Below, piece after piece: positions 6,142-16,085 of a stretch of 28,967 nucleotides of DNA. Position numbers and translations under genes: made by a program. The notes below the pieces were generated by a model. The model was not told where the DNA came from. It did no database searches and worked only from the letters and a program-made list of their open reading frames with translations. Positions within the stretch are counted from its first letter, which is position 1, and each line of letters begins with the position of its first letter. Origin of the DNA: a virus; IMG/VR virus record IMGVR_UViG_3300027763_000183, positions 1 to 28,967 of that record; one strand, given 5' to 3'.

Positions 6142-6870
6142 TTAATTTATTTTTCTTGAAGATCTTTTATTGTATTCCGTTTTGTTTAATAAACTTTTTT
6201 CCTTGAAGCATTTATTAAACCAATACTTGCAAAAATCATAATCGATTAAACATCTATTTATAAAGTCATTTTTAGTATCTGGATAATCACCTTTGAATTC
6301 ATTTGACTTTGAATAATAAAAATTATAAAACCCATCAATTCCAATATTAGCAAAGAAAATTAATTTCAAATATGTTAAAAACATTACTTCTGTGTTTGAA
6401 TTTCTTAAATTAGATATAGTCCTCCTACCAACACCAAACATATATCCAAGTAAATCATCTTTAAAGTTTGTGCTTATTTTTAATGATTTATACACCTCTC
6501 CCATATTTAACATGCACAAATACGTTGTATTTATTTGCTCTCTTGTTGTCGTTGATGGAGAGTTTATTGAATTATATTCATCTCTGTTTCCATTTAATAG
6601 CATACCTTGGGTGTTAGAATAATATGTTATATGAAATCTTTCTCTGTCTGACAAATCATTTATGTCATCAACTTTCTCTATTACGTCTATAAATGGCTCA
6701 AGTCCTTGTTTATTTAATTCAGATACCCATTCGTTTACGCTGCTATTGTGTGATTCTTTAAGGTGAACTAATGGTCTATCATCTCCAATAGATGTTTTTC
6801 CTATGTATCTGTATGTGTCGTTCCTTGGGTCTCTAAGACCATAAATGTAGTTTTTGTATATATTTTTCAT
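6142..6870 (-). CDS. GIY-YIG family endonuclease (probable free-standing homing endonuclease)
   Basis: The N-terminus NYIYGLRDPRNDTYRYIGKT gives the two signature strands (GIY read as IYG, YIG exact). They are followed by an Arg/His region, N-x-x-V-x-E-W, and a conserved Glu in SDRERFHITYY (about residue 75), as in GIY-YIG nucleases. The C-terminal half is Lys/Asn-rich and contains a helix-turn-helix-like stretch (FGVGRRTISNLRNSN), the usual DNA-binding part. At 242 residues it fits a mobile endonuclease. It sits alone between repeat-rich DNA and small genes, as expected for a selfish insertion. Target unknown. Confidence 0.8.
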   Translation of the reverse strand: MKNIYKNYIYGLRDPRNDTYRYIGKTSIGDDRPLVHLKESHNSSVNEWVSELNKQGLEPFIDVIEKVDDINDLSDRERFHITYYSNTQGMLLNGNRDEYNSINSPSTTTREQINTTYLCMLNMGEVYKSLKISTNFKDDLLGYMFGVGRRTISNLRNSNTEVMFLTYLKLIFFANIGIDGFYNFYYSKSNEFKGDYPDTKNDFINRCLIDYDFCKYWFNKCFKEKSLLNKTEYNKRSSRKIN

Positions 6871-6936: not shown

Positions 6937-7194
6937 TCAAACATAAGCCTGTAAGTGTTCTTTACTGTCATTTGTTTGCTCTATGACATCTCTTACATCC
7001 TCCCAGAAGGAGTAATACATTTCTTTGTCTTCGTCTGTGATTAGATAAAATCCAGTCTTGAGTTTTAACTTATAGATTTCATCAACTGCGATTAGAGCAC
7101 ATTGTTTAGCCGTATACTCGTCTATGTGTCCTTGATAACAAAAGAGCATATTATTAATTAACTCTTTTGCCTTCTCTTGTGCTGGTGTCATCAT
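6937..7194 (-). CDS. Small phage protein (AKQCALIAVDEI family), 85 aa
   Basis: The sequence EKAKELINNM...YTAKQCALIAVDEIYKL...FWEDVRDVIE belongs to a small helical family frequent in Bacteroidota phages, often present in several copies per genome. The gene at 17939-18136 looks like a divergent paralogue (KANELI...LAIKVVNEII...LVKEEIKTY). No function is known. The start overlaps the stop of the preceding gene by four bases. Confidence 0.7.
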   Translation of the reverse strand: MMTPAQEKAKELINNMLFCYQGHIDEYTAKQCALIAVDEIYKLKLKTGFYLITDEDKEMYYSFWEDVRDVIEQTNDSKEHLQAYV

Positions 7195-7415
7195 CTAAGT
7201 TTAAGAGCATTCTCATTTAGTATCTCATATAGTTTCTCTCTAGTATCATCTAATGCCTTCCATGTATCTTCTGACATTCCTTCTGGAGGATGTTTAGTCT
7301 GAGACCGAAGGTGTTGATCTAGTTCCCACATTGCTAAAGACCATCTCTGTCCATTGACAGCATCTTCAAAATCGATGTGATCCTCTGGTAAATTGAATTC
7401 AATAATTGCTTTCAT
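7191..7415 (-). CDS. Conserved small phage protein (MKAIIEFNLPED family), 74 aa
   Basis: MKAIIEFNLPEDHIDFEDAV, then RWSLAMWELDQHLRSQTKH and a helical end. This opening (a beta strand, then LPED and a helix ending in a Leu-Asp pair) is familiar from many tailed phages, where the gene usually lies among replication and nucleotide genes. Function unknown. It carries one GGHCTCAG copy (7299-7306) in the frame encoding Arg-Ser-Gln. Confidence 0.75.
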   Translation of the reverse strand: MKAIIEFNLPEDHIDFEDAVNGQRWSLAMWELDQHLRSQTKHPPEGMSEDTWKALDDTREKLYEILNENALKLR

Positions 7416-7482
7416 AGTTTTTTTGTCAGGTTTGAGCTGATATTATGTATACAGAGGGACATTGATGCCCCTTTGTTATTTG

Positions 7483-7608
7483 TCAGAGAGACAGGACTCT
7501 AACCTGTATTTTGGGCACTCTATGGTTAGAGGGCTAATCCCAAATTGCTATATTTAGCTAGCAGCGTCTAACACGTCAGGGTTACCCCTAACCTTCCGCC
7601 ACTCTCCG
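7483..7608 (-). ncRNA. Large tRNA-like RNA (Leu-type elements, 126 nt)
   Basis: On the minus strand a 7-bp acceptor (CGGAGAG with CTCTCTG, one G-U) encloses TG, a GCG/CGC D-stem, a 5-bp anticodon-type stem (TGCTA/TAGCA), a long variable arm (CCCAAA/TTTGGG) and a 5-bp T-stem (ACAGG/CCTGT). TGGCGGAA and TTAGACGC resemble a leucine tRNA. Unusual points are an 8-nt anticodon loop, a T-loop TTAGAGT in place of TTCRANY, no encoded CCA, and extra mini-hairpins in the D-loop (7580-7593) and variable arm (7518-7531), each a perfect 5-bp stem with 4-nt loop. A TAGATTTG -7-like box lies upstream at 7739-7746. It is either a degenerate tRNA or a distinct RNA. The rest of 7416-7785 shows only short hairpins (such as 7711-7726). 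Confidence 0.5.
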
Positions 7609-7785
7609 GTATTTGCCTTTTTGAACGATGTCGGGAAGGCTAACCCTATCTCCTATACGATGAGAACAGCTGCGTTGAGCATTGTCAAGAGGCTTTCTGT
7701 ATTTTACGATCCCCTGATCAACGGGGCTAATTACTTTACAAATCTATATTTACTTTTTTATATTTGTGTCATCTGAGTGTCATAT

Positions 7786-10596
7786 TTAAACTACCTCACA
7801 ATTATTTCCAGAGCACGCTTGTTCGCCCATAAGATTGGTATTATCACTAACTTCAATAACTTTTGTGACATCAATCTGATGAATCTTTTTAGACATCTTA
7901 TCGTATTCTTCCTTCGTGATTGTTTCGAATGGAGTCTGTGGATAAGAACCTAAATCTTCAGGTAAGAAAGATAAGCCATTGTAATGGTTTTGATTTTCCC
8001 ACAACCACTCTCCAACCATTGCCCACTCGTTTTTCTTAACAGTAACAGTAGCTGAAACATTGTGCGTATTTTCTCCGTACACATGACCTGGTTTAATCCA
8101 TTTCTCGTGAATAAGTTTAACACGTTCAAGGAATTCAATTGCGCTTTCTGAACTTCTGGTGATGGATCCTTTAGGTGCAGCCACTGGAATACTTACTACT
8201 GAATTAATAGTAGGCTGGTATACACAATCCTCAAGAAGCTCAGGATGATAAATTGAAAGATAAGTATAAATAGCTTCGTTCTTACCAATTCTCATTCTGC
8301 GAACATAATACTCATCATGCCAAGCATGGATACCAGATGAAGTACCTAGAACCAAAGATGAAGTTCCACTAGGTTTAACCGTTGTGATACGAGCAGCAGG
8401 ATTGATTCCAATAGCAGCAGCAGTAAATGAATTAACTCTCATTGTAGCTTCAGCAGCTTCAGCCATATCTAAACTAAATATTTTACCACTAGCAATACCA
8501 GTCATACCTACACCTAATAATGCTTCACGTTCTGTTACTTCTTTCCAAATAGGTCTCAAGTAATGAAAGTCTGTATAAGATGCTTGAAGTGTTCCAATAA
8601 ACGCAGCGGCCTCAGCTCTTGCTTCAAAATCCCATTGGTCAGTTATATCTGACGCATTGATTTCTACTAAGTTACAGAACTGAAATGAATTTAAGCTAAT
8701 CTCACCACAGTTGTGAACAACTACTCCTTCAACTACACCCCAATGGGTATCACCTTCCAAGCTAAAGTCAAAAACCTCTTTGTTATTATAGTTAATAATA
8801 CTTGTTGCAAGCGGAGCCCTTTTTGAAATAAGATTATTCAAAGAATTCATTTTGTAAGTATGTACAAATCCAATATTTTCAGCAAACCAAATAATATCTT
8901 TTATTTGTCCAATATTTACATCATAAGATTCTTTACATTCGTAATTACCATTAGTAAACTCAACAGTTTTTGCTTTGTTTGTTGTAATATACGGACTTAA
9001 TTCAAACCACCGAAGAATCGTCATAAGCTCATTGGCTAATTCTAGACAAGTGGTTTTGTATGCAATCCTTGAAGTAGTTATTACGCTTCCATTTGCAGAG
9101 TACATTCCTTTTAAAAATGATTTCTTTGCGTCATTGTCTAAATGGTAATATCCAGTCGGTATCTCTCTTTTTGGTAATGGTTCAGAACTAAATCCTAATA
9201 CTTTTAATGCGGTATTGAATCCGTTTACATATTTCTTACCTGTATCTTCGAATCCAAAAATTTCCGCAACGTCTTGATCTTTTTCTCCAAAGTAAATTTC
9301 AAGACCTTTATGTGATTCGCTTTTTAACCTTCCAGTGCAACCGTCTCCTTGAATAAATCCAAGTTTTACAAATTCGTTTATTTCTTTATTTGGAACATAG
9401 TGAGGCATTACTCTTTTGCCTTTTAAATCTTTAGCTTCACACGCTTCACCATTACTCAACATAAATCTATGGTCAGGTGTACATTCTATTTCAGTTCCGT
9501 CATTTAATTTCACAGCACAAATTTGTTTTGACCCATTGGACCAAACCAGACCATCAACAGTTTCGCCATTCTTGTTAACAAGCTGAACGCTCTCTTCTTT
9601 TACAAGGTCTTCAAATCTTCTGTAACCCTGTGATGTCAATAATTTCATGTTACCGGTGAAGCAAGGATTTGTTCCTAATTCTAGATCGTTAGTAAATAAG
9701 AAACCCGGTTCTCCTGCGTTACTAGCTTCAACCTTTTTCCATAGATTCAAAAACAATTGCTTATCTACAGAACCACGCTTTAATTTAACACTGTTGTTGG
9801 CTCTTCCTCTTTGAGGATTAAAATCATACCATTCTCCAGACTTACAAGTCAACATCTCTTCATCATCTTCATCGAAGAGAGCAATCATTGCTGATCTACG
9901 AATACCTCCGCTCAATACTGCGTTAGCAATGTGGCATAAGATATCGTGACACTCTACAGAAGTTAATTGTTCGCCATCTTTTTTGCGTTCTAAAATCGCT
10001 TCGATATGAGCAACACAAATCTTCAAAGGTTCTGGTCCTGGAGCTACTCCACCACTAGTGATTAATCTTTCTCCTTTGGCTCTGATAGCACGGTAATCAA
10101 AGTTTGGTTTCCATGTGCTGAGACCGAAGTAAGATTTCATCAATACTTTAATCGCATCGGCCCATCCCTCGATGTTATCCGGAATAAGATAACGTCTTGT
10201 TTTAGTTGCTCTAGAGATTTTTGGAAGTTTAGCTATGTGATTTTTACTAACACTATATCCAACTCCAGTACCTGAAAGAAGTAAGAACATTGTTTCATTG
10301 AATGCTCTATAGTCATCAATGTGCAAATAGGAGCAGTTGAAAAGTCTACTATTATTTACCTCGATTGGTTTACCACCAAACTGAAGCGAACGCATAGAAG
10401 GAAGTACCTTCTGGTCATAAACTAATTCATAACTTGTTCTGATTAACTTTTCTAACTGTGGAAACTTACGAATATGCATTTCCATATTACGAGTAATAAT
10501 CTCTTGCCAGGTCTCTCTGCGTTGTAATGCTTCTGAGTATTTAGCATACTTAGACCACACCACAACGTCTGACAATATTTTGTGACTATCTTCCAT
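7786..10596 (-). CDS. nrdJ: Class II (B12-dependent) ribonucleotide reductase with in-frame intein
   Basis: Reduces ribonucleotides to deoxyribonucleotides for phage DNA synthesis. Motifs fit the monomeric adenosylcobalamin type: RLFNCSY (redox Cys about 88), LLLSGTGVGYS, NP-CGEISL (radical site Cys630 and Glu), FQFCNL (redox Cys 641), VKPSGTSSLVLGTSSGIH and the C-terminal shuttle ACSGNNCEVV. An intein of 318 residues (312-629) interrupts NP|CGEI, exactly at the radical Cys, so activity needs splicing. Removing it leaves 618 residues, somewhat short for this class. The start overlaps the MazG-like gene by one base. Class I is less likely since no small-subunit gene is seen. Confidence 0.9.
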   Translation of the reverse strand: MEDSHKILSDVVVWSKYAKYSEALQRRETWQEIITRNMEMHIRKFPQLEKLIRTSYELVYDQKVLPSMRSLQFGGKPIEVNNSRLFNCSYLHIDDYRAFNETMFLLLSGTGVGYSVSKNHIAKLPKISRATKTRRYLIPDNIEGWADAIKVLMKSYFGLSTWKPNFDYRAIRAKGERLITSGGVAPGPEPLKICVAHIEAILERKKDGEQLTSVECHDILCHIANAVLSGGIRRSAMIALFDEDDEEMLTCKSGEWYDFNPQRGRANNSVKLKRGSVDKQLFLNLWKKVEASNAGEPGFLFTNDLELGTNPCFTGNMKLLTSQGYRRFEDLVKEESVQLVNKNGETVDGLVWSNGSKQICAVKLNDGTEIECTPDHRFMLSNGEACEAKDLKGKRVMPHYVPNKEINEFVKLGFIQGDGCTGRLKSESHKGLEIYFGEKDQDVAEIFGFEDTGKKYVNGFNTALKVLGFSSEPLPKREIPTGYYHLDNDAKKSFLKGMYSANGSVITTSRIAYKTTCLELANELMTILRWFELSPYITTNKAKTVEFTNGNYECKESYDVNIGQIKDIIWFAENIGFVHTYKMNSLNNLISKRAPLATSIINYNNKEVFDFSLEGDTHWGVVEGVVVHNCGEISLNSFQFCNLVEINASDITDQWDFEARAEAAAFIGTLQASYTDFHYLRPIWKEVTEREALLGVGMTGIASGKIFSLDMAEAAEATMRVNSFTAAAIGINPAARITTVKPSGTSSLVLGTSSGIHAWHDEYYVRRMRIGKNEAIYTYLSIYHPELLEDCVYQPTINSVVSIPVAAPKGSITRSSESAIEFLERVKLIHEKWIKPGHVYGENTHNVSATVTVKKNEWAMVGEWLWENQNHYNGLSFLPEDLGSYPQTPFETITKEEYDKMSKKIHQIDVTKVIEVSDNTNLMGEQACSGNNCEVV
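8710..9663 (-). mobile_element. Intein with LAGLIDADG endonuclease inside the reductase
   Basis: It begins at Cys312 (CFTGNMKLLTSQGYRRFEDL) and ends in VVEGVVVHN at Asn629, followed by Cys630 as the +1 nucleophile. Block B reads DGTEIECTPDHRFML, with Thr and His in place. The endonuclease has two LAGLIDADG helices, LGFIQGDGC (about 412-420) and LKGMYSANGSV (about 495-505). The second has Asn where the usual catalytic Asp stands, a variant I associate with reductase inteins but which may reduce cleavage. Splicing residues are all present, so protein splicing should be intact. Confidence 0.92.
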
Positions 10597-13177: not shown

Positions 13178-13479
13178 ATTAATTTTACTATTGGTCCTGT
13201 TGTTATATAATAATCATCGTTTACTTCCATCAAGTGAAATGTCATTCTGGTTCCTGGAAGAGTTTTCCAATTGTCTGAGACCACTCGAATTTTTATTTGT
13301 CCATATTGCACTATCATTGTGGTTCCGTCATCAGAAAGCACATCGCAGAACTTCTTACCTTTCAAGCCAGTTCTCAAGGATAGATAAGACATATCATCCA
13401 TATTAACGTAGTCAATATCTTTTCCTATAAGTTCAGCGAACTGAACGATCCTTCCAAAGGTTAACATTGATACGTTCAT
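13174..13479 (-). CDS. Hypothetical protein, 101 aa, beta-rich
   Basis: A 101-residue protein with an N-terminal helix (FGRIVQFAELIGKDIDYV) followed by alternating strands (TTMIVQYGQIKIRVV, TRMTFHLMEVNDDYYITTG). The fold could be a small beta-barrel, possibly nucleic-acid binding, but no motif confirms this. It is coupled to the helicase C-terminal gene (four-base overlap), so it may work in the replisome. Family not recognised. Confidence 0.6.
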   Translation of the reverse strand: MNVSMLTFGRIVQFAELIGKDIDYVNMDDMSYLSLRTGLKGKKFCDVLSDDGTTMIVQYGQIKIRVVSDNWKTLPGTRMTFHLMEVNDDYYITTGPIVKLI

Positions 13480-14333
13480 AACAAAGAGAATTGATTTAAT
13501 AAGACATCAGAAAGATTATCGTAGTTTCCATTTTCAGAATACCGACCAGTCTTTTTATCAAAGTAGTAATCTACATTTCCAAGCTGACCTCTAAAGTGAT
13601 ACTTCATTTTTTGTACATGAAGTGTTATGTTTTGTTCTCCGGGTTCTCCTTGAAATCTTCTATGAACTACCATACCAACATCTGAACTATTGAAGAAGTG
13701 ACTTGACTGAGCAATGTCGTAAAGCGTAGGTACTTTATATTCAGCACCTAACTTATCCATCTTACGAGGATGGGCTACTAATGTCACATTAATGTCATAT
13801 TTCAAACAAAACTTCTTGAGGTTTCTCAATAACTCTCCAATGTTCTCGTGGGTATTTTCTTTACTGCCTTCTAATTCTAAATAGTTGAATGGATCTAAGC
13901 ACAAACAAGTGATACCGTATCGTCTAATCATTCCTTTAGCCAAAGTTAAGATGTGTTCAATTTTAAAGTTTTCCATCTCCTCGATATTATAAAAGTAAAA
14001 GTGATCATTGATAAAGCTCAAGGCGTATTTAATTTGTTCTTCGTTTAACTCTTTGATTGAATCTCCCATCAACTGCTCGATCATCCTTGTGATCTTTAGT
14101 GGTACAGCATTCTCAGGAGAGAATATTCCAAACTTCCAATTCTCAATAACAGCCAGTCGAATGTAATAGTAATCTATCAGAGTACTTTTCCCTGAGTTGT
14201 GTACAAGGATTGGGGTACTGTTTGTTGCTAGGTAGTAATTGTGATTTGTATCTACGGTCAAGTCATATACTTCTTCGCAAGGTATTTCCTCAAACGATAC
14301 AATTTCTTCTAAGTTTAAGATAAATGCTTCCAT
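13476..14333 (-). CDS. Split primase-helicase, C-terminal part: intein C half plus helicase
   Basis: Residues 1-46 are the C half of a split intein: EVYDLTVDTNHNYYLA is block F, PILVHN ends in the splice His-Asn, and Ser47 is the +1 nucleophile. Then SGKSTLIDYYY continues the Walker A loop begun in the upstream gene. The helicase core goes on with LCLDPFNYLE (Walker B), LVAHPRKM (H4-like) and QKMKYHFRGQLG with a final Tyr-rich strand, as in T7 gp4. The gene has its own ATG at 14333, overlapping the HNH gene by 19 bases. It gives 239 helicase residues after splicing. Alone it lacks half the ATP-binding loop. Confidence 0.88.
   Translation of the reverse strand: MEAFILNLEEIVSFEEIPCEEVYDLTVDTNHNYYLATNSTPILVHNSGKSTLIDYYYIRLAVIENWKFGIFSPENAVPLKITRMIEQLMGDSIKELNEEQIKYALSFINDHFYFYNIEEMENFKIEHILTLAKGMIRRYGITCLCLDPFNYLELEGSKENTHENIGELLRNLKKFCLKYDINVTLVAHPRKMDKLGAEYKVPTLYDIAQSSHFFNSSDVGMVVHRRFQGEPGEQNITLHVQKMKYHFRGQLGNVDYYFDKKTGRYSENGNYDNLSDVLLNQFSLL
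14196..14333 (-). mobile_element. Split intein, C-terminal half (46 aa)
   Basis: From Met1 to Asn46 of the downstream helicase gene. The conserved VYDLTV...NYYL and terminal LVHN are intact, and Ser follows. A 46-residue C half is within the usual range of natural split inteins (35-50). It pairs with the N half at 14817-15119. Confidence 0.88.
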
Positions 14334-14848
14334 GTTCTTCTTTGTACGAGTTGTTTTATTACTGCAAATGTTGTATTGTATTTATCTGCTAATTGTTGTT
14401 TAGTCATTCCTTTTCTTGTTTTTTTACCGAATTCATAGTTTGCTAATATTTCTTTGGCTTGTTCTTCTGTTATTGTTGCGCTTGGATTTCTTTCTCCTTT
14501 GTTGCTAGATATACCAATCTTAAAGGAGTGGATACTATTTTCCCTAAATGTACACCACTCCAAATTAATTAATCGATTGTCATTTCTAATTCCATTGATG
14601 TGATTAACAACTGGTTTGTTTTCAGGATTTTCTAAAAAGGTTTGTGCGACTAATCGATGTACCTTAACTGTACACAACTTACCATCAGAATCTCTTTTTA
14701 AAACTGTTCTAAGATAACCACAACCATCAAGTGCAGGTTTCATAATTCTTTCCTTACCCATGTTTTTCCAATTAAATGTTTTAATTTCTCCATAGTTTGA
14801 AATTTCGTACAAACTAAATGCTGGTATTTTCTTCCATATTTTTATCAT
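14315..14848 (-). CDS. Free-standing HNH homing endonuclease (NUMOD4-HNH) between the intein halves
   Basis: A 177-residue nuclease. Residues 1-45 are a NUMOD4 DNA-binding motif (IWKKIPAFSLYEISNYGEIK). Residues about 60-108 form an HNH_3-type core: VHRLVAQTFLENP, VNHINGIRNDNRLINLEW and N-S-I-H. The C-terminus has a helix-turn-helix (QQLADKYNTTFAVIKQLVQR). The reading frame differs from both flanking genes and overlaps them by 35 and 19 bases. A perfect-spacing promoter ends 4 bases before its ATG. It presumably cleaves intein-free helicase alleles and so spreads the split intein by homing; this target is inference. Confidence 0.9.
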   Translation of the reverse strand: MIKIWKKIPAFSLYEISNYGEIKTFNWKNMGKERIMKPALDGCGYLRTVLKRDSDGKLCTVKVHRLVAQTFLENPENKPVVNHINGIRNDNRLINLEWCTFRENSIHSFKIGISSNKGERNPSATITEEQAKEILANYEFGKKTRKGMTKQQLADKYNTTFAVIKQLVQRRTWKHLS

Positions 14849-16085
14849 TCTTCAAAGATAGCAATAAATCTTTGATTTGCAAATATGACACCCCAGTAAA
14901 AAATTCATGATTCTCTGTAACCTTGATTATTGTTCCATCCTTCATTGTTATTTTATACATCTTATCGGGCGTTGTTTTGTGTATTGGAGTTGCCAATACT
15001 CTGCGCCACTCGTTGATGTCTTTGTCTTGATTGTAAGAAAGAACATAATCTTTTGTTGTGATTTCTGATATTGGAACAACCCCTCTTCTTGTGTGAATTA
15101 ATTGTTCTTTATCAAAACATCCTGGAACGCCCGAACATACAACCAACTCACCTCTGTTCCAACTCAACAACTTGTCAGTATCATTCATCGCAACAGTGGC
15201 TCCCTTAGGGTATCCGTCTGATCTATAAGTAAAAATCAAATCCCTATAGTCTAGGGCCTCAGATAATTCTTTGATTGGTAATAACTTAGCTTCTTTGAAT
15301 AAGTTACCCAAGTATTCTGATCCGTACAACTTAAGTACATCGTTGGCATCCTTGCAATCATCAGGGAAGGATACAACATAAACATCAGAGTGTTCAAACC
15401 TTCTAGCCAAGTCATCTCTTAACTTTCTTCCAGGAGCATCGCTATCTGTAGCTAAGATGATCTTTTTATTCTCGAAGTACTGATAGGAATTATCCAGCCA
15501 CTCTAAGTTGTTTGTATTTACATTGGCTCCTCCGGGACAAGATACAACGTGTGGATAACCTGACTGATGCCATACCATTGTTTCTTCTTCTCCCTCGCAG
15601 ATAATAACGTAGTCAGATTCTTTAATTGAATTAAGATTGTAAGCAATCTTCTTTGCTCCGGTAACCATTTTAAATAGTTTAGTCGAAGTCTTAAATTTTA
15701 TATTCACAAGGGACATATCATCGTAATAGTTAAAACAAACTGTTAGATGTTTCTTTCCATCTTGTGGCATGGTTTCTACAGCCATAGTGATCCGGAAGGA
15801 TTCTACCGTTAAAGGCAGGATCCCCCGTCCACTAAAGTATGCCTGTATTCTACCATCAGGGCCCTCTTTTCTTGGTTCAGGCACATTGTATTGGCGTGCT
15901 GATGCTGAACCGCTCCACTGGCAATTGTGGCATTTGTATAATCCTGTATCGATGTTAACCGATAAGCAAGGATCATTTTGTTTTTTCCTAGTGCTTGAGC
16001 ACTTAGGACATTTAGTTTTTATAAGACCACTAAATTGGCCTTTGGTATCAATACCTAATTTTGATAATTCGCTTTGGTAACTCAT
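14814..16085 (-). CDS. Split primase-helicase, N-terminal part: primase plus intein N half
   Basis: T7 gp4-like. A zinc finger (C26-P-K-C29 and C52-H-N-C55), then an RNA-polymerase/Toprim primase with IICEGEEETM (E164) and ILATDSDAPG (D214, D216) and a linker. The start of the helicase ends at CSGVPG (residue 322), midway through Walker A. Residues 323-423 are the N half of an intein (starts CFDKEQLIHTRRG; block B DGTIIKVTENHEFFT), followed by a stop. After trans-splicing with the downstream gene the loop reads GVPGSGKST and the enzyme is about 561 residues, close to T7 gp4 (566). It primes and unwinds at the fork. Confidence 0.9.
   Translation of the reverse strand: MSYQSELSKLGIDTKGQFSGLIKTKCPKCSSTRKKQNDPCLSVNIDTGLYKCHNCQWSGSASARQYNVPEPRKEGPDGRIQAYFSGRGILPLTVESFRITMAVETMPQDGKKHLTVCFNYYDDMSLVNIKFKTSTKLFKMVTGAKKIAYNLNSIKESDYVIICEGEEETMVWHQSGYPHVVSCPGGANVNTNNLEWLDNSYQYFENKKIILATDSDAPGRKLRDDLARRFEHSDVYVVSFPDDCKDANDVLKLYGSEYLGNLFKEAKLLPIKELSEALDYRDLIFTYRSDGYPKGATVAMNDTDKLLSWNRGELVVCSGVPGCFDKEQLIHTRRGVVPISEITTKDYVLSYNQDKDINEWRRVLATPIHKTTPDKMYKITMKDGTIIKVTENHEFFTGVSYLQIKDLLLSLKNDKNMEENTSI
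14817..15119 (-). mobile_element. Split intein, N-terminal half (101 aa)
   Basis: Cys323 to Ile423 of the primase gene. Cys at the splice junction, block A (CFDKEQLIHT), block B with Thr390 and His393 (VTENHEFF). The frame then ends in TAA; the last 11 codons overlap the HNH gene. About 100 residues is typical for a split-intein N half. Confidence 0.88.
14853..14882 (-). promoter_or_regulatory. Bacteroidota-type promoter of the HNH endonuclease gene
   Basis: On the minus strand TTG (14880-14882), 19 bases, TATCTTTG (14853-14860). This matches the Bacteroidota sigma-ABfr consensus in both boxes and in spacing. It lies inside the 3' end of the N-half gene. TTTG ends 4 bases before the HNH ATG, so the transcript is probably leaderless. 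It could also supply the helicase C half. Confidence 0.72.

What the first reader, a model, noticed from the sequence alone, without database searches (positions are those of the whole stretch)
7483..7608. 126-nt tRNA-like RNA with perfect mini-hairpins inserted in the D-loop and variable arm
All tRNA arms can be drawn with Leu-like sequence words, but the molecule is about 40 bases longer than a tRNA-Leu. The extra length consists of two perfect 5-bp/4-nt hairpins (GGTTA-CCCC-TAACC and CTCTA-TGGT-TAGAG as read on the plus strand). The anticodon loop has 8 bases and the T-loop lacks the conserved C. The D-loop insert could also pair with part of the variable-arm insert (GGTTAGGGG with CCCTCTAACC, one bulge). 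This is not simple decay, since the inserts are themselves structured. It may be a decoy, a regulatory tRNA mimic, or a tRNA adapted to escape nucleases.
Basis: partly seen in the sequence, partly recalled or inferred. Interest (0 to 1): 0.7.

Follow-up and report, generated by a model that had tools for sequence, protein, structure and literature searches.

The report
Leucine-tRNA body carrying swappable RNA cargo
This phage gene, and about 140 relatives in uncultured phages, makes an RNA with the body and probably the amino-acid-accepting end of a leucine tRNA, but the part that should read the genetic code is replaced by an exchangeable folded piece of RNA, so it is probably a carrier for another function, not a translator.

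Summary
The tRNA-like RNA at 7483-7608 (minus strand) is real and is not a decaying tRNA. It belongs to an undescribed family found in IMG/VR phage contigs. I found no match in 50,697 cultured-phage records or 84,980 bacterial and archaeal species genomes. Members keep a leucine-type tRNA body: acceptor, D and T stems, the elbow pair 19-56 and the Levitt pair 15-48. The anticodon and variable arms are replaced by 45-150 nt of other structured RNA ("cargo"). In 19 relatives with the D-loop hairpin, 99.8% of body pairs hold and 14 of 22 pairs show changes on both sides. The missing T-loop C is compensated (G19-C56 became U19-A56). The D-loop insert is a 7-bp hairpin, not the 5-bp one drawn. Elements of 96 nt or more have a canonical anticodon arm no more often than shuffled sequence. 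Cargo moves between bodies: L120 and L123 are identical up to the D arm and then carry different cargo, L123 the window's. Directly upstream lies a second undescribed RNA (RNA A) containing a sub-threshold abiF antitoxin-like hairpin. Most likely this is a processed, possibly leucylated stable carrier of non-decoding RNA, perhaps counter-defence. The structure is well supported; the function is inferred.

The parts
7483..7608 (-). tRNA-body (shell) RNA, 126 nt including discriminator A73 at 7483
   Evidence: Rfam tRNA 26.4 bits, E 0.002; family and covariation
7602..7608 (-). acceptor stem, 5' strand CGGAGAG (partner 7484-7490)
   Evidence: 6 of 7 pairs with double changes among 19 relatives, 99.2% paired
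7484..7490 (-). acceptor stem, 3' strand CTCTCTG
7564..7599 (-). D arm: stem GCG (7597-7599) / CGC (7564-7566); loop holds the inserted hairpin and U19 (7571)
   Evidence: stem invariant in 19 relatives
7575..7592 (-). D-loop inserted hairpin GTTAGGG-GTAA-CCCTGAC, 7 bp, invariant U.G third pair
   Evidence: 100% paired in 19 relatives, 4 pairs with double changes; register test
7508..7563 (-). cargo: 56 nt in place of anticodon and variable arms (hairpins TGCTA/TAGCA, TTGGG/CCCAA, CTCTA/TAGAG); its last base U48 (7508) makes the Levitt pair with A15
   Evidence: fold z -1.96; same cargo on another body in L123; Levitt pair
7491..7507 (-). T arm ACAGG-TTAGAGT-CCTGT; A56 at 7500 pairs with U19 at 7571
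   Evidence: T stem 100% paired, 4 of 5 pairs with double changes; 19-56 tally
7615..7727 (-). RNA A: undescribed structured RNA, 6 bases upstream of the shell
   Evidence: exact core in 79 IMG/VR stretches; 10 of 23 pairs with double changes, 0/500 shuffles; model score 132 bits here
7666..7700 (-). abiF-RNA-like hairpin inside RNA A (core 7675-7694, AGCCUCUUGACAAUGCUCAA)
   Evidence: RF03085: 23.3 bits here; 25-28.5 bits over the whole model in five relatives; loop kept in diverged L230
7452..7475 (-). hairpin downstream of the shell (AAAGGGGCATCAATGTCCCTCTG)
   Evidence: same element in L003, L004, L006 and L038

Best explanation
The element is a tRNA-body RNA. Phages of this group use a leucine-type tRNA body (acceptor, D arm, T arm, elbow contacts, and here an extra D-loop hairpin) as a standard carrier for interchangeable non-decoding RNA domains. 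SHOWN by comparison: the body is under structural selection; members of 96 nt or more have no anticodon arm above chance; cargo folds, covaries and is exchanged between bodies by recombination at the D-arm end. INFERRED: host RNase P and RNase Z trim the ends, CCA is added, and host LeuRS may charge it, because the features that E. coli tRNA-Leu needs are kept and the arms it can lose are the ones replaced. The ends would make the RNA stable, and the cargo would act on host RNA or protein. Given the neighbouring abiF-antitoxin-like RNA A and the arms-race-like turnover of cargo, the likeliest role is counter-defence, as a decoy or antitoxin RNA. That last step is not shown.
For: Body: 99.8% of 418 pair cells form, 14 of 22 pairs have double changes, covariation 0.555 against 0.141 shuffled, 0/500; slid controls 34-52% paired. 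Elbow pair 19-56: of 120 elements 117 read G-C (two of them listed as C-C by the motif search because the base after GG is C), 2 U-A and 1 G.U. Levitt pair 15-48 complementary in 118 of 122, including 4 U-A and 3 G-C, although base 48 lies at the end of the cargo. A14 in 130/135, A73 in 118/135. Anticodon arm: 3 of 141 long elements, as in shuffles, against 60% of short ones. Default ARAGORN finds 8 of 150 elements over 95 nt. Cargo: mean fold z -0.83 over 96 representatives, p 1e-10; one cargo family with a pseudoknotted fold, 9 of 19 pairs double-changed, on four kinds of body. Exchange: L120 against L123. E. coli tRNA-Leu without anticodon and variable arms is still leucylated, needing A73, A15-U48, G18G19, A20a, G19-C56 and U54:A58 (PMC9976931). 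RNA A; no Abi_2 toxin gene in 21 phage records.
Against: No transcript, charging or binding data. The abiF resemblance is below Rfam's cut-off and lies in RNA A, not in the shell, and only about 4 of 97 shell-bearing loci from the 3'-half scan carry RNA A. No cargo matches a known RNA. Some shells have G73 (14 of 135), which in E. coli disfavours LeuRS. T54, A58 and G53-C61 were required by my finder, so their constancy is no evidence. The window's own cargo has too few distinct relatives for a covariation test.
Confidence: 0.55

Rival explanations
1. A decaying tRNA-Leu gene: insertions accumulate in a pseudogene whose stems have not yet been lost.
For: Tool scores are poor (26.4 bits, below cut-off; ARAGORN none). 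T-loop C56 and G19 differ from consensus.
Against: Acceptor stems with almost no shared sequence stay paired in 19 relatives with 14 double-changed pairs; 19-56 change is compensated; cargo itself covaries and folds.
Confidence: 0.06
2. A decoding tRNA interrupted by introns in the D loop and anticodon region, removed after transcription.
For: Inserts lie in places where other tRNAs carry introns; ARAGORN in intron mode accepts many elements.
Against: ARAGORN intron mode accepts shuffled cargo almost as often (57 against 50.6, range 45-55; 44 against 42.6). Inserts are far shorter than group I introns and nothing in Rfam matches. Cargo sequence is conserved between phages on different bodies.
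Confidence: 0.07
3. A functional tRNA with an 8-nt anticodon loop, acting as a frameshift suppressor or as a tRNA resistant to anticodon nucleases.
For: The window and L006 tRNA1 both show 8-nt loops. Phage tRNAs that evade nucleases through anticodon-loop changes are known (PMC10264068, abstract seen).
Against: 8-nt-loop hairpins are scarcely commoner in long elements than in shuffles (about 4% against 2%); most long elements have no anticodon-like arm at all.
Confidence: 0.08
4. A phage tmRNA-like RNA: charged tRNA-like body with a hidden tag reading frame that rescues ribosomes.
For: Same topology as tmRNA (tRNA-like ends enclosing other RNA); one element in L249 scores weakly as tmRNA (18.9 bits, cut-off 47).
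Against: D stem is intact and the body is Leu-type, not Ala-type; cargo changes follow base pairs, not codons, by inspection; window cargo is 56 nt. ARAGORN, which also searches for tmRNA, calls none in the window.
Confidence: 0.05
5. The body is only a processing and stability cap, or a recombination handle for moving cassettes, and the cargo is regulatory RNA acting on phage or host mRNAs (antisense), not counter-defence.
For: Arrays alternate bodies with other conserved RNAs; exchange point at the D-arm end; no defence target identified.
Against: Keeping the Leu-specific contacts 15-48 and 19-56 is more than a processing cap clearly needs; antisense targets were not searched.
Confidence: 0.19

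Closest known systems
tRNA-Leu (Rfam RF00005, class II)
   Same: acceptor, D arm GGCGGAA..GGTAGACGC, T arm, A73, A15-U48, G18/G19 elbow contacts
   Different: no anticodon arm above chance; 45-150 nt cargo instead of anticodon and variable arms; D-loop hairpin insert
tmRNA (RF00023), tRNA-like domain
   Same: tRNA ends and T arm enclosing unrelated structured RNA in place of the anticodon region
   Different: Leu-type with an intact D stem, not Ala-type; no tag frame recognised; many different cargoes
Phage T4 rnaC (species 1 RNA, 139 nt, NC_000866 70908-71046)
   Same: stable RNA of unknown function in a phage tRNA cluster with a tRNA-type T arm CCGGG-TTCGAAT-CCCGG near its 3' end
   Different: acceptor pairs only 4-5 of 7, no D arm seen; single RNA; rnaD has no T arm
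abiF RNA (RF03085), antitoxin of AbiF
   Same: RNA A beside the shell has the abiF hairpin loop CUCUnnACnAU within AGC/GCU and an outer helix
   Different: 25-28.5 bits in five relatives against a cut-off of 37 (19.9 in L005, 23.3 core here); embedded in a larger new RNA; no abiF gene nearby
GOLLD and ROOL RNAs
   Same: structured phage RNAs of unknown function near tRNA islands; GOLLD sometimes holds tRNAs (PMC12286853)
   Different: hundreds of nt long, unrelated structures, no Rfam match here
Artificial 'tRNA scaffold' for RNA expression
   Same: foreign RNA carried in a tRNA body to gain stability (tRNA-scaffold papers located; principle from own knowledge)
   Different: laboratory construct; here natural and multiplied

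Membership tests
tRNA (decoding) | 7-bp acceptor, D and T stems with elbow contacts | tested here: met
tRNA (decoding) | 5-bp anticodon stem with 7-nt loop and U33 | tested here: not met
   window loop is 8 nt; long family members 3/141, equal to shuffles
tRNA (decoding) | score above Rfam gathering cut-off | tested here: not met
   26.4 against 29; several relatives do pass
tRNA-Leu identity (E. coli rules) | A73, A15-U48, G18-G19 with G19-C56, U54:A58 | tested here: met
   window: A73, A15-U48, U19-A56 as compensated pair; family counts; charging itself untested
tmRNA | tag reading frame | not tested
   no frame analysis run; ARAGORN calls no tmRNA in the window
tmRNA | covariance-model match | tested here: not met
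   no tmRNA hit in the window
tRNA with intron | removing the insert restores a canonical anticodon arm | tested here: not met
   intron-mode detection close to shuffled cargo
abiF RNA (for RNA A) | score above cut-off 37 | tested here: not met
   23.3 in window, up to 28.5 in relatives
abiF RNA (for RNA A) | adjacent abiF toxin gene | tested here: not met
   no Abi_2 in 21 records; a decoy would not need one
abiF RNA (for RNA A) | neutralises AbiF | not testable with these tools
   needs an experiment

The most novel reading that the evidence does not exclude
Phages carry arrays of natural tRNA scaffolds: leucylatable tRNA bodies, freed from decoding, that carry exchangeable RNA effector domains, next to a second RNA platform (RNA A) with antitoxin-like hairpins. 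Together they form an RNA-only counter-defence island whose cargo is swapped by recombination.
Probability: 0.35. Interest if true: 0.92.

Novelty: new variant of a known kind. Interest (0 to 1): 0.74.

Why it matters
Phage tRNAs are usually explained by codon supply or by evasion of tRNA-cutting defences. Here is a family of phage 'tRNAs' that apparently cannot decode, yet keep the elements for being charged with leucine and carry varied folded RNA. Standard tRNA finders miss most long members (8 of 150 found). It makes concrete tests possible: are they charged, what does the cargo bind, and do phages use RNA antitoxin mimics against AbiF-type (Cas13-ancestor) nucleases? It may also bear on the old puzzle of stable RNAs such as T4 species 1 RNA.

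Tried and rejected
(2) Introns, decay, frameshift suppression: see rivals. (3) Host by sequence: RNA A and the D-insert are absent from genome contigs, so no host was identified; Shine-Dalgarno-like sites in only 2 of 24 genes hint at Bacteroidota, no more. (4) Terminase finds no cultured relative; DNA polymerase and RNR hits are below 60% identity and scattered. (5) Cargo in Rfam at relaxed thresholds: only tRNA-type and chance hits. (6) Phage-encoded CCA enzyme as partner: in only 2 of 20 records. (7) RNA A as obligatory partner of shells: rejected, about 4 of 97 shell loci. (8) T4 rnaC and rnaD as members: only a T arm in rnaC. (9) Literature searches found no description of such a family, but the library is open-access only.

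Full report
WHAT IS IN THE WINDOW. The finding lies in the 370-bp gap between the ribonucleotide reductase gene (7786-10596, minus) and a 74-aa gene (7191-7415, minus). On the minus strand, 7608 to 7483 reads as a tRNA body. Rfam's tRNA model matches exactly these coordinates at 26.4 bits, slightly under its cut-off; ARAGORN and Rfam at gathering report nothing. The molecule folds better than shuffles (z -2.7). The window is a 28,967-base virus record that stands alone.

RELATIVES. Neighbour-gene, RNR and DNA-pattern searches of IMG/VR gave about 300 loci. In close relatives the same gap holds an array. L006, for example, has RNA A, a tRNA-like gene, RNA B, the homologue of the finding, RNA C and a third tRNA-like gene. 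A finder that asked only for a T arm, a paired acceptor and D-stem geometry gave 413 distinct elements. Many have ordinary tRNA length, but 150 exceed 95 nt, and default ARAGORN recognises only 8 of these.

THE BODY IS UNDER SELECTION. For 19 elements with the D-loop hairpin, cargo removed, 99.8% of 418 pair cells form and 14 of 22 pairs carry changes on both sides. The covariation score is 0.555 against 0.141 in shuffles (0/500), and sliding the partner by 1-3 columns drops pairing to 34-52%. The D-loop hairpin is the 7-bp GTTAGGG-NNNN-CCCTGAC. Variants GTTGGGG/CCCCGAC, GCTGGGG/CCCCGGC and GATCAGG/CCTGGTC (loci found without using the hairpin sequence as query), and GTTAGGA/TCCTGAC, keep it, with an invariant U.G third pair. 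Two tertiary contacts that the finder did not require are also kept. Pair 15-48 is A-U in 111, U-A in 4 and G-C in 3 of 122, although base 48 is the last base of the otherwise replaced region.

WHAT WAS REPLACED. In elements of 96 nt or more, a 5-bp/7-nt arm with U33 directly after the D arm occurs in 3 of 141, as in shuffled cargo, against 60% of elements up to 78 nt. ARAGORN's intron mode accepts shuffled cargo almost as often as real cargo, so neither an anticodon arm nor an interrupted one is supported. The replacement is not random: 96 cargo representatives have a mean fold z of -0.83 (t -7.3), and the window's cargo -1.96. One cargo family of seven sequences shows a pseudoknotted fold with 9 of 19 pairs double-changed, 0/500 shuffles, and sits on four kinds of body with different acceptors and D loops.

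CARGO MOVES. L120 and L123 are identical through most of RNA A and the 5' half of the shell to the end of the D stem (GACGCT), then wholly different. L123 continues with the window's cargo, T stem and 3' acceptor strand; L120 continues with another cargo. The L123 hybrid still pairs 7/7, two of them G-U. This looks like recombination with the D arm as the joint.

WHY LEUCINE. In E. coli, tRNA-Leu lacking both anticodon and variable arms is still leucylated; the needed features are A73, A15-U48, G18G19, A20a and the D-T loop contacts G19-C56 and U54:A58 (PMC9976931, section 12). The shells keep these (A73 in 118 of 135, A14 in 130 of 135) and lose the dispensable arms. My inference is that they can be charged, or at least descend from a tRNA chosen because its charging ignores the anticodon, as the Ala-type body of tmRNA does. 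T54 and A58 were required by the finder and are not counted as evidence.

RNA A. The best conserved stretch near the finding is not the tRNA but 7615-7727. An exact 21-base core occurs in 79 IMG/VR stretches and in no cultured phage or bacterial genome searched. Its six helices, one a pseudoknot, have 10 of 23 pairs double-changed, 0/500. Helix 4 is invariant in that set because the scan used its sequence, but it differs yet remains pairable in diverged copies in L230, L220 and L285. The hairpin within helix 2 matches abiF RNA, the antitoxin of the AbiF nuclease (PMC12373285). The match covers the whole model at 25-28.5 bits in five relatives, and in all six first-searched records RNA A is the best place (19.9 bits, partial, in L005). 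The loop stays in L230 where the helix around it has changed. It never reaches the cut-off of 37, only 5 of the 20 records in a second search (one of them searched before) had a match, and no Abi_2 gene is present. The same position holds unrelated hairpins in other phages, so RNA A too looks like a platform with a variable part.

READING. Structure and exchange are shown by comparison. Processing, charging and stability follow from the tRNA body but are inferred. Counter-defence is the weakest step and rests on the neighbouring antitoxin-like RNA and the turnover of cargo. I file the element as neither a tRNA (anticodon arm not met) nor a tmRNA. It works like a tRNA-scaffolded RNA, for which I know artificial but no natural families. 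Searches for a prior description found none, in an open-access library.

Noticed in passing
window 7615-7727 (-): RNA A, a widespread undescribed phage RNA with pseudoknot and an abiF-like hairpin; other versions carry different hairpins (for example CCGTAAGATC type in L134, L147, L177, L187, L220).
   Followed up: partly
L006 5310-5471 and 5602-5733: Two more conserved RNAs (B and C) between the shells, found only in close relatives plus L111 (C) and weakly L304 (B); both end in a similar GACAACGGGGAAAGACCCGT hairpin.
   Followed up: partly
L131, L157, L161, L167, L176, L178 downstream of RNA A: RNA D, ACTATTAGTAAACTTTAGTACCC...GCTAATAGTAA, conserved and strongly paired; also RNA E (ATGTGTTG..CCCTTGAGAAAGG...AACACAGAGG) in L137, L164, L179, L193.
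   Followed up: no
L153, L163, L170, L185, L195, L196 just after RNA A: Short element TTGACAGCTTGGAAAGACAGCCACCTTCGGGTGT just before a coding gene; possible leader.
   Followed up: no
L119, minus strand, element starting at 2694: A shell whose D-loop insert is itself a small tRNA-like element (ACCCCGT...GTGGTTCGAATCCAC...ACGGGGT): one tRNA-like nested in another.
   Followed up: no
L213, L235, L246, L281: A further cargo family with GTG-type D stem and a conserved GGTTGACCAC segment, 155-175 nt.
   Followed up: no
window 13476-16085 (-): Replicative primase/helicase apparently broken in two by intein halves (N part in ORF 14814-16085, C part in ORF 13476-14333) with a free HNH-type gene (14315-14848) between: looks like a split intein with a fractured gene.
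   Followed up: partly
window 7786-10596 (-): Ribonucleotide reductase with a likely intein (CFTGN...VVVHNC); several relatives seem to lack this stretch.
   Followed up: no
window 6142-6870 (-); L003 207-830: GIY-YIG-like homing endonuclease genes close to the array; in L003 one lies downstream of the shell.
   Followed up: no
window 7408-7445 (-): Weak preQ1-riboswitch-like hairpin with A-rich tail before the 74-aa gene (14.9 bits, E 2.1); the TCAGTTCAAACCTGACA form recurs in relatives.
   Followed up: no
L249 1916-2038 (+): A shell that scores weakly as tmRNA (18.9 bits, cut-off 47).
   Followed up: no
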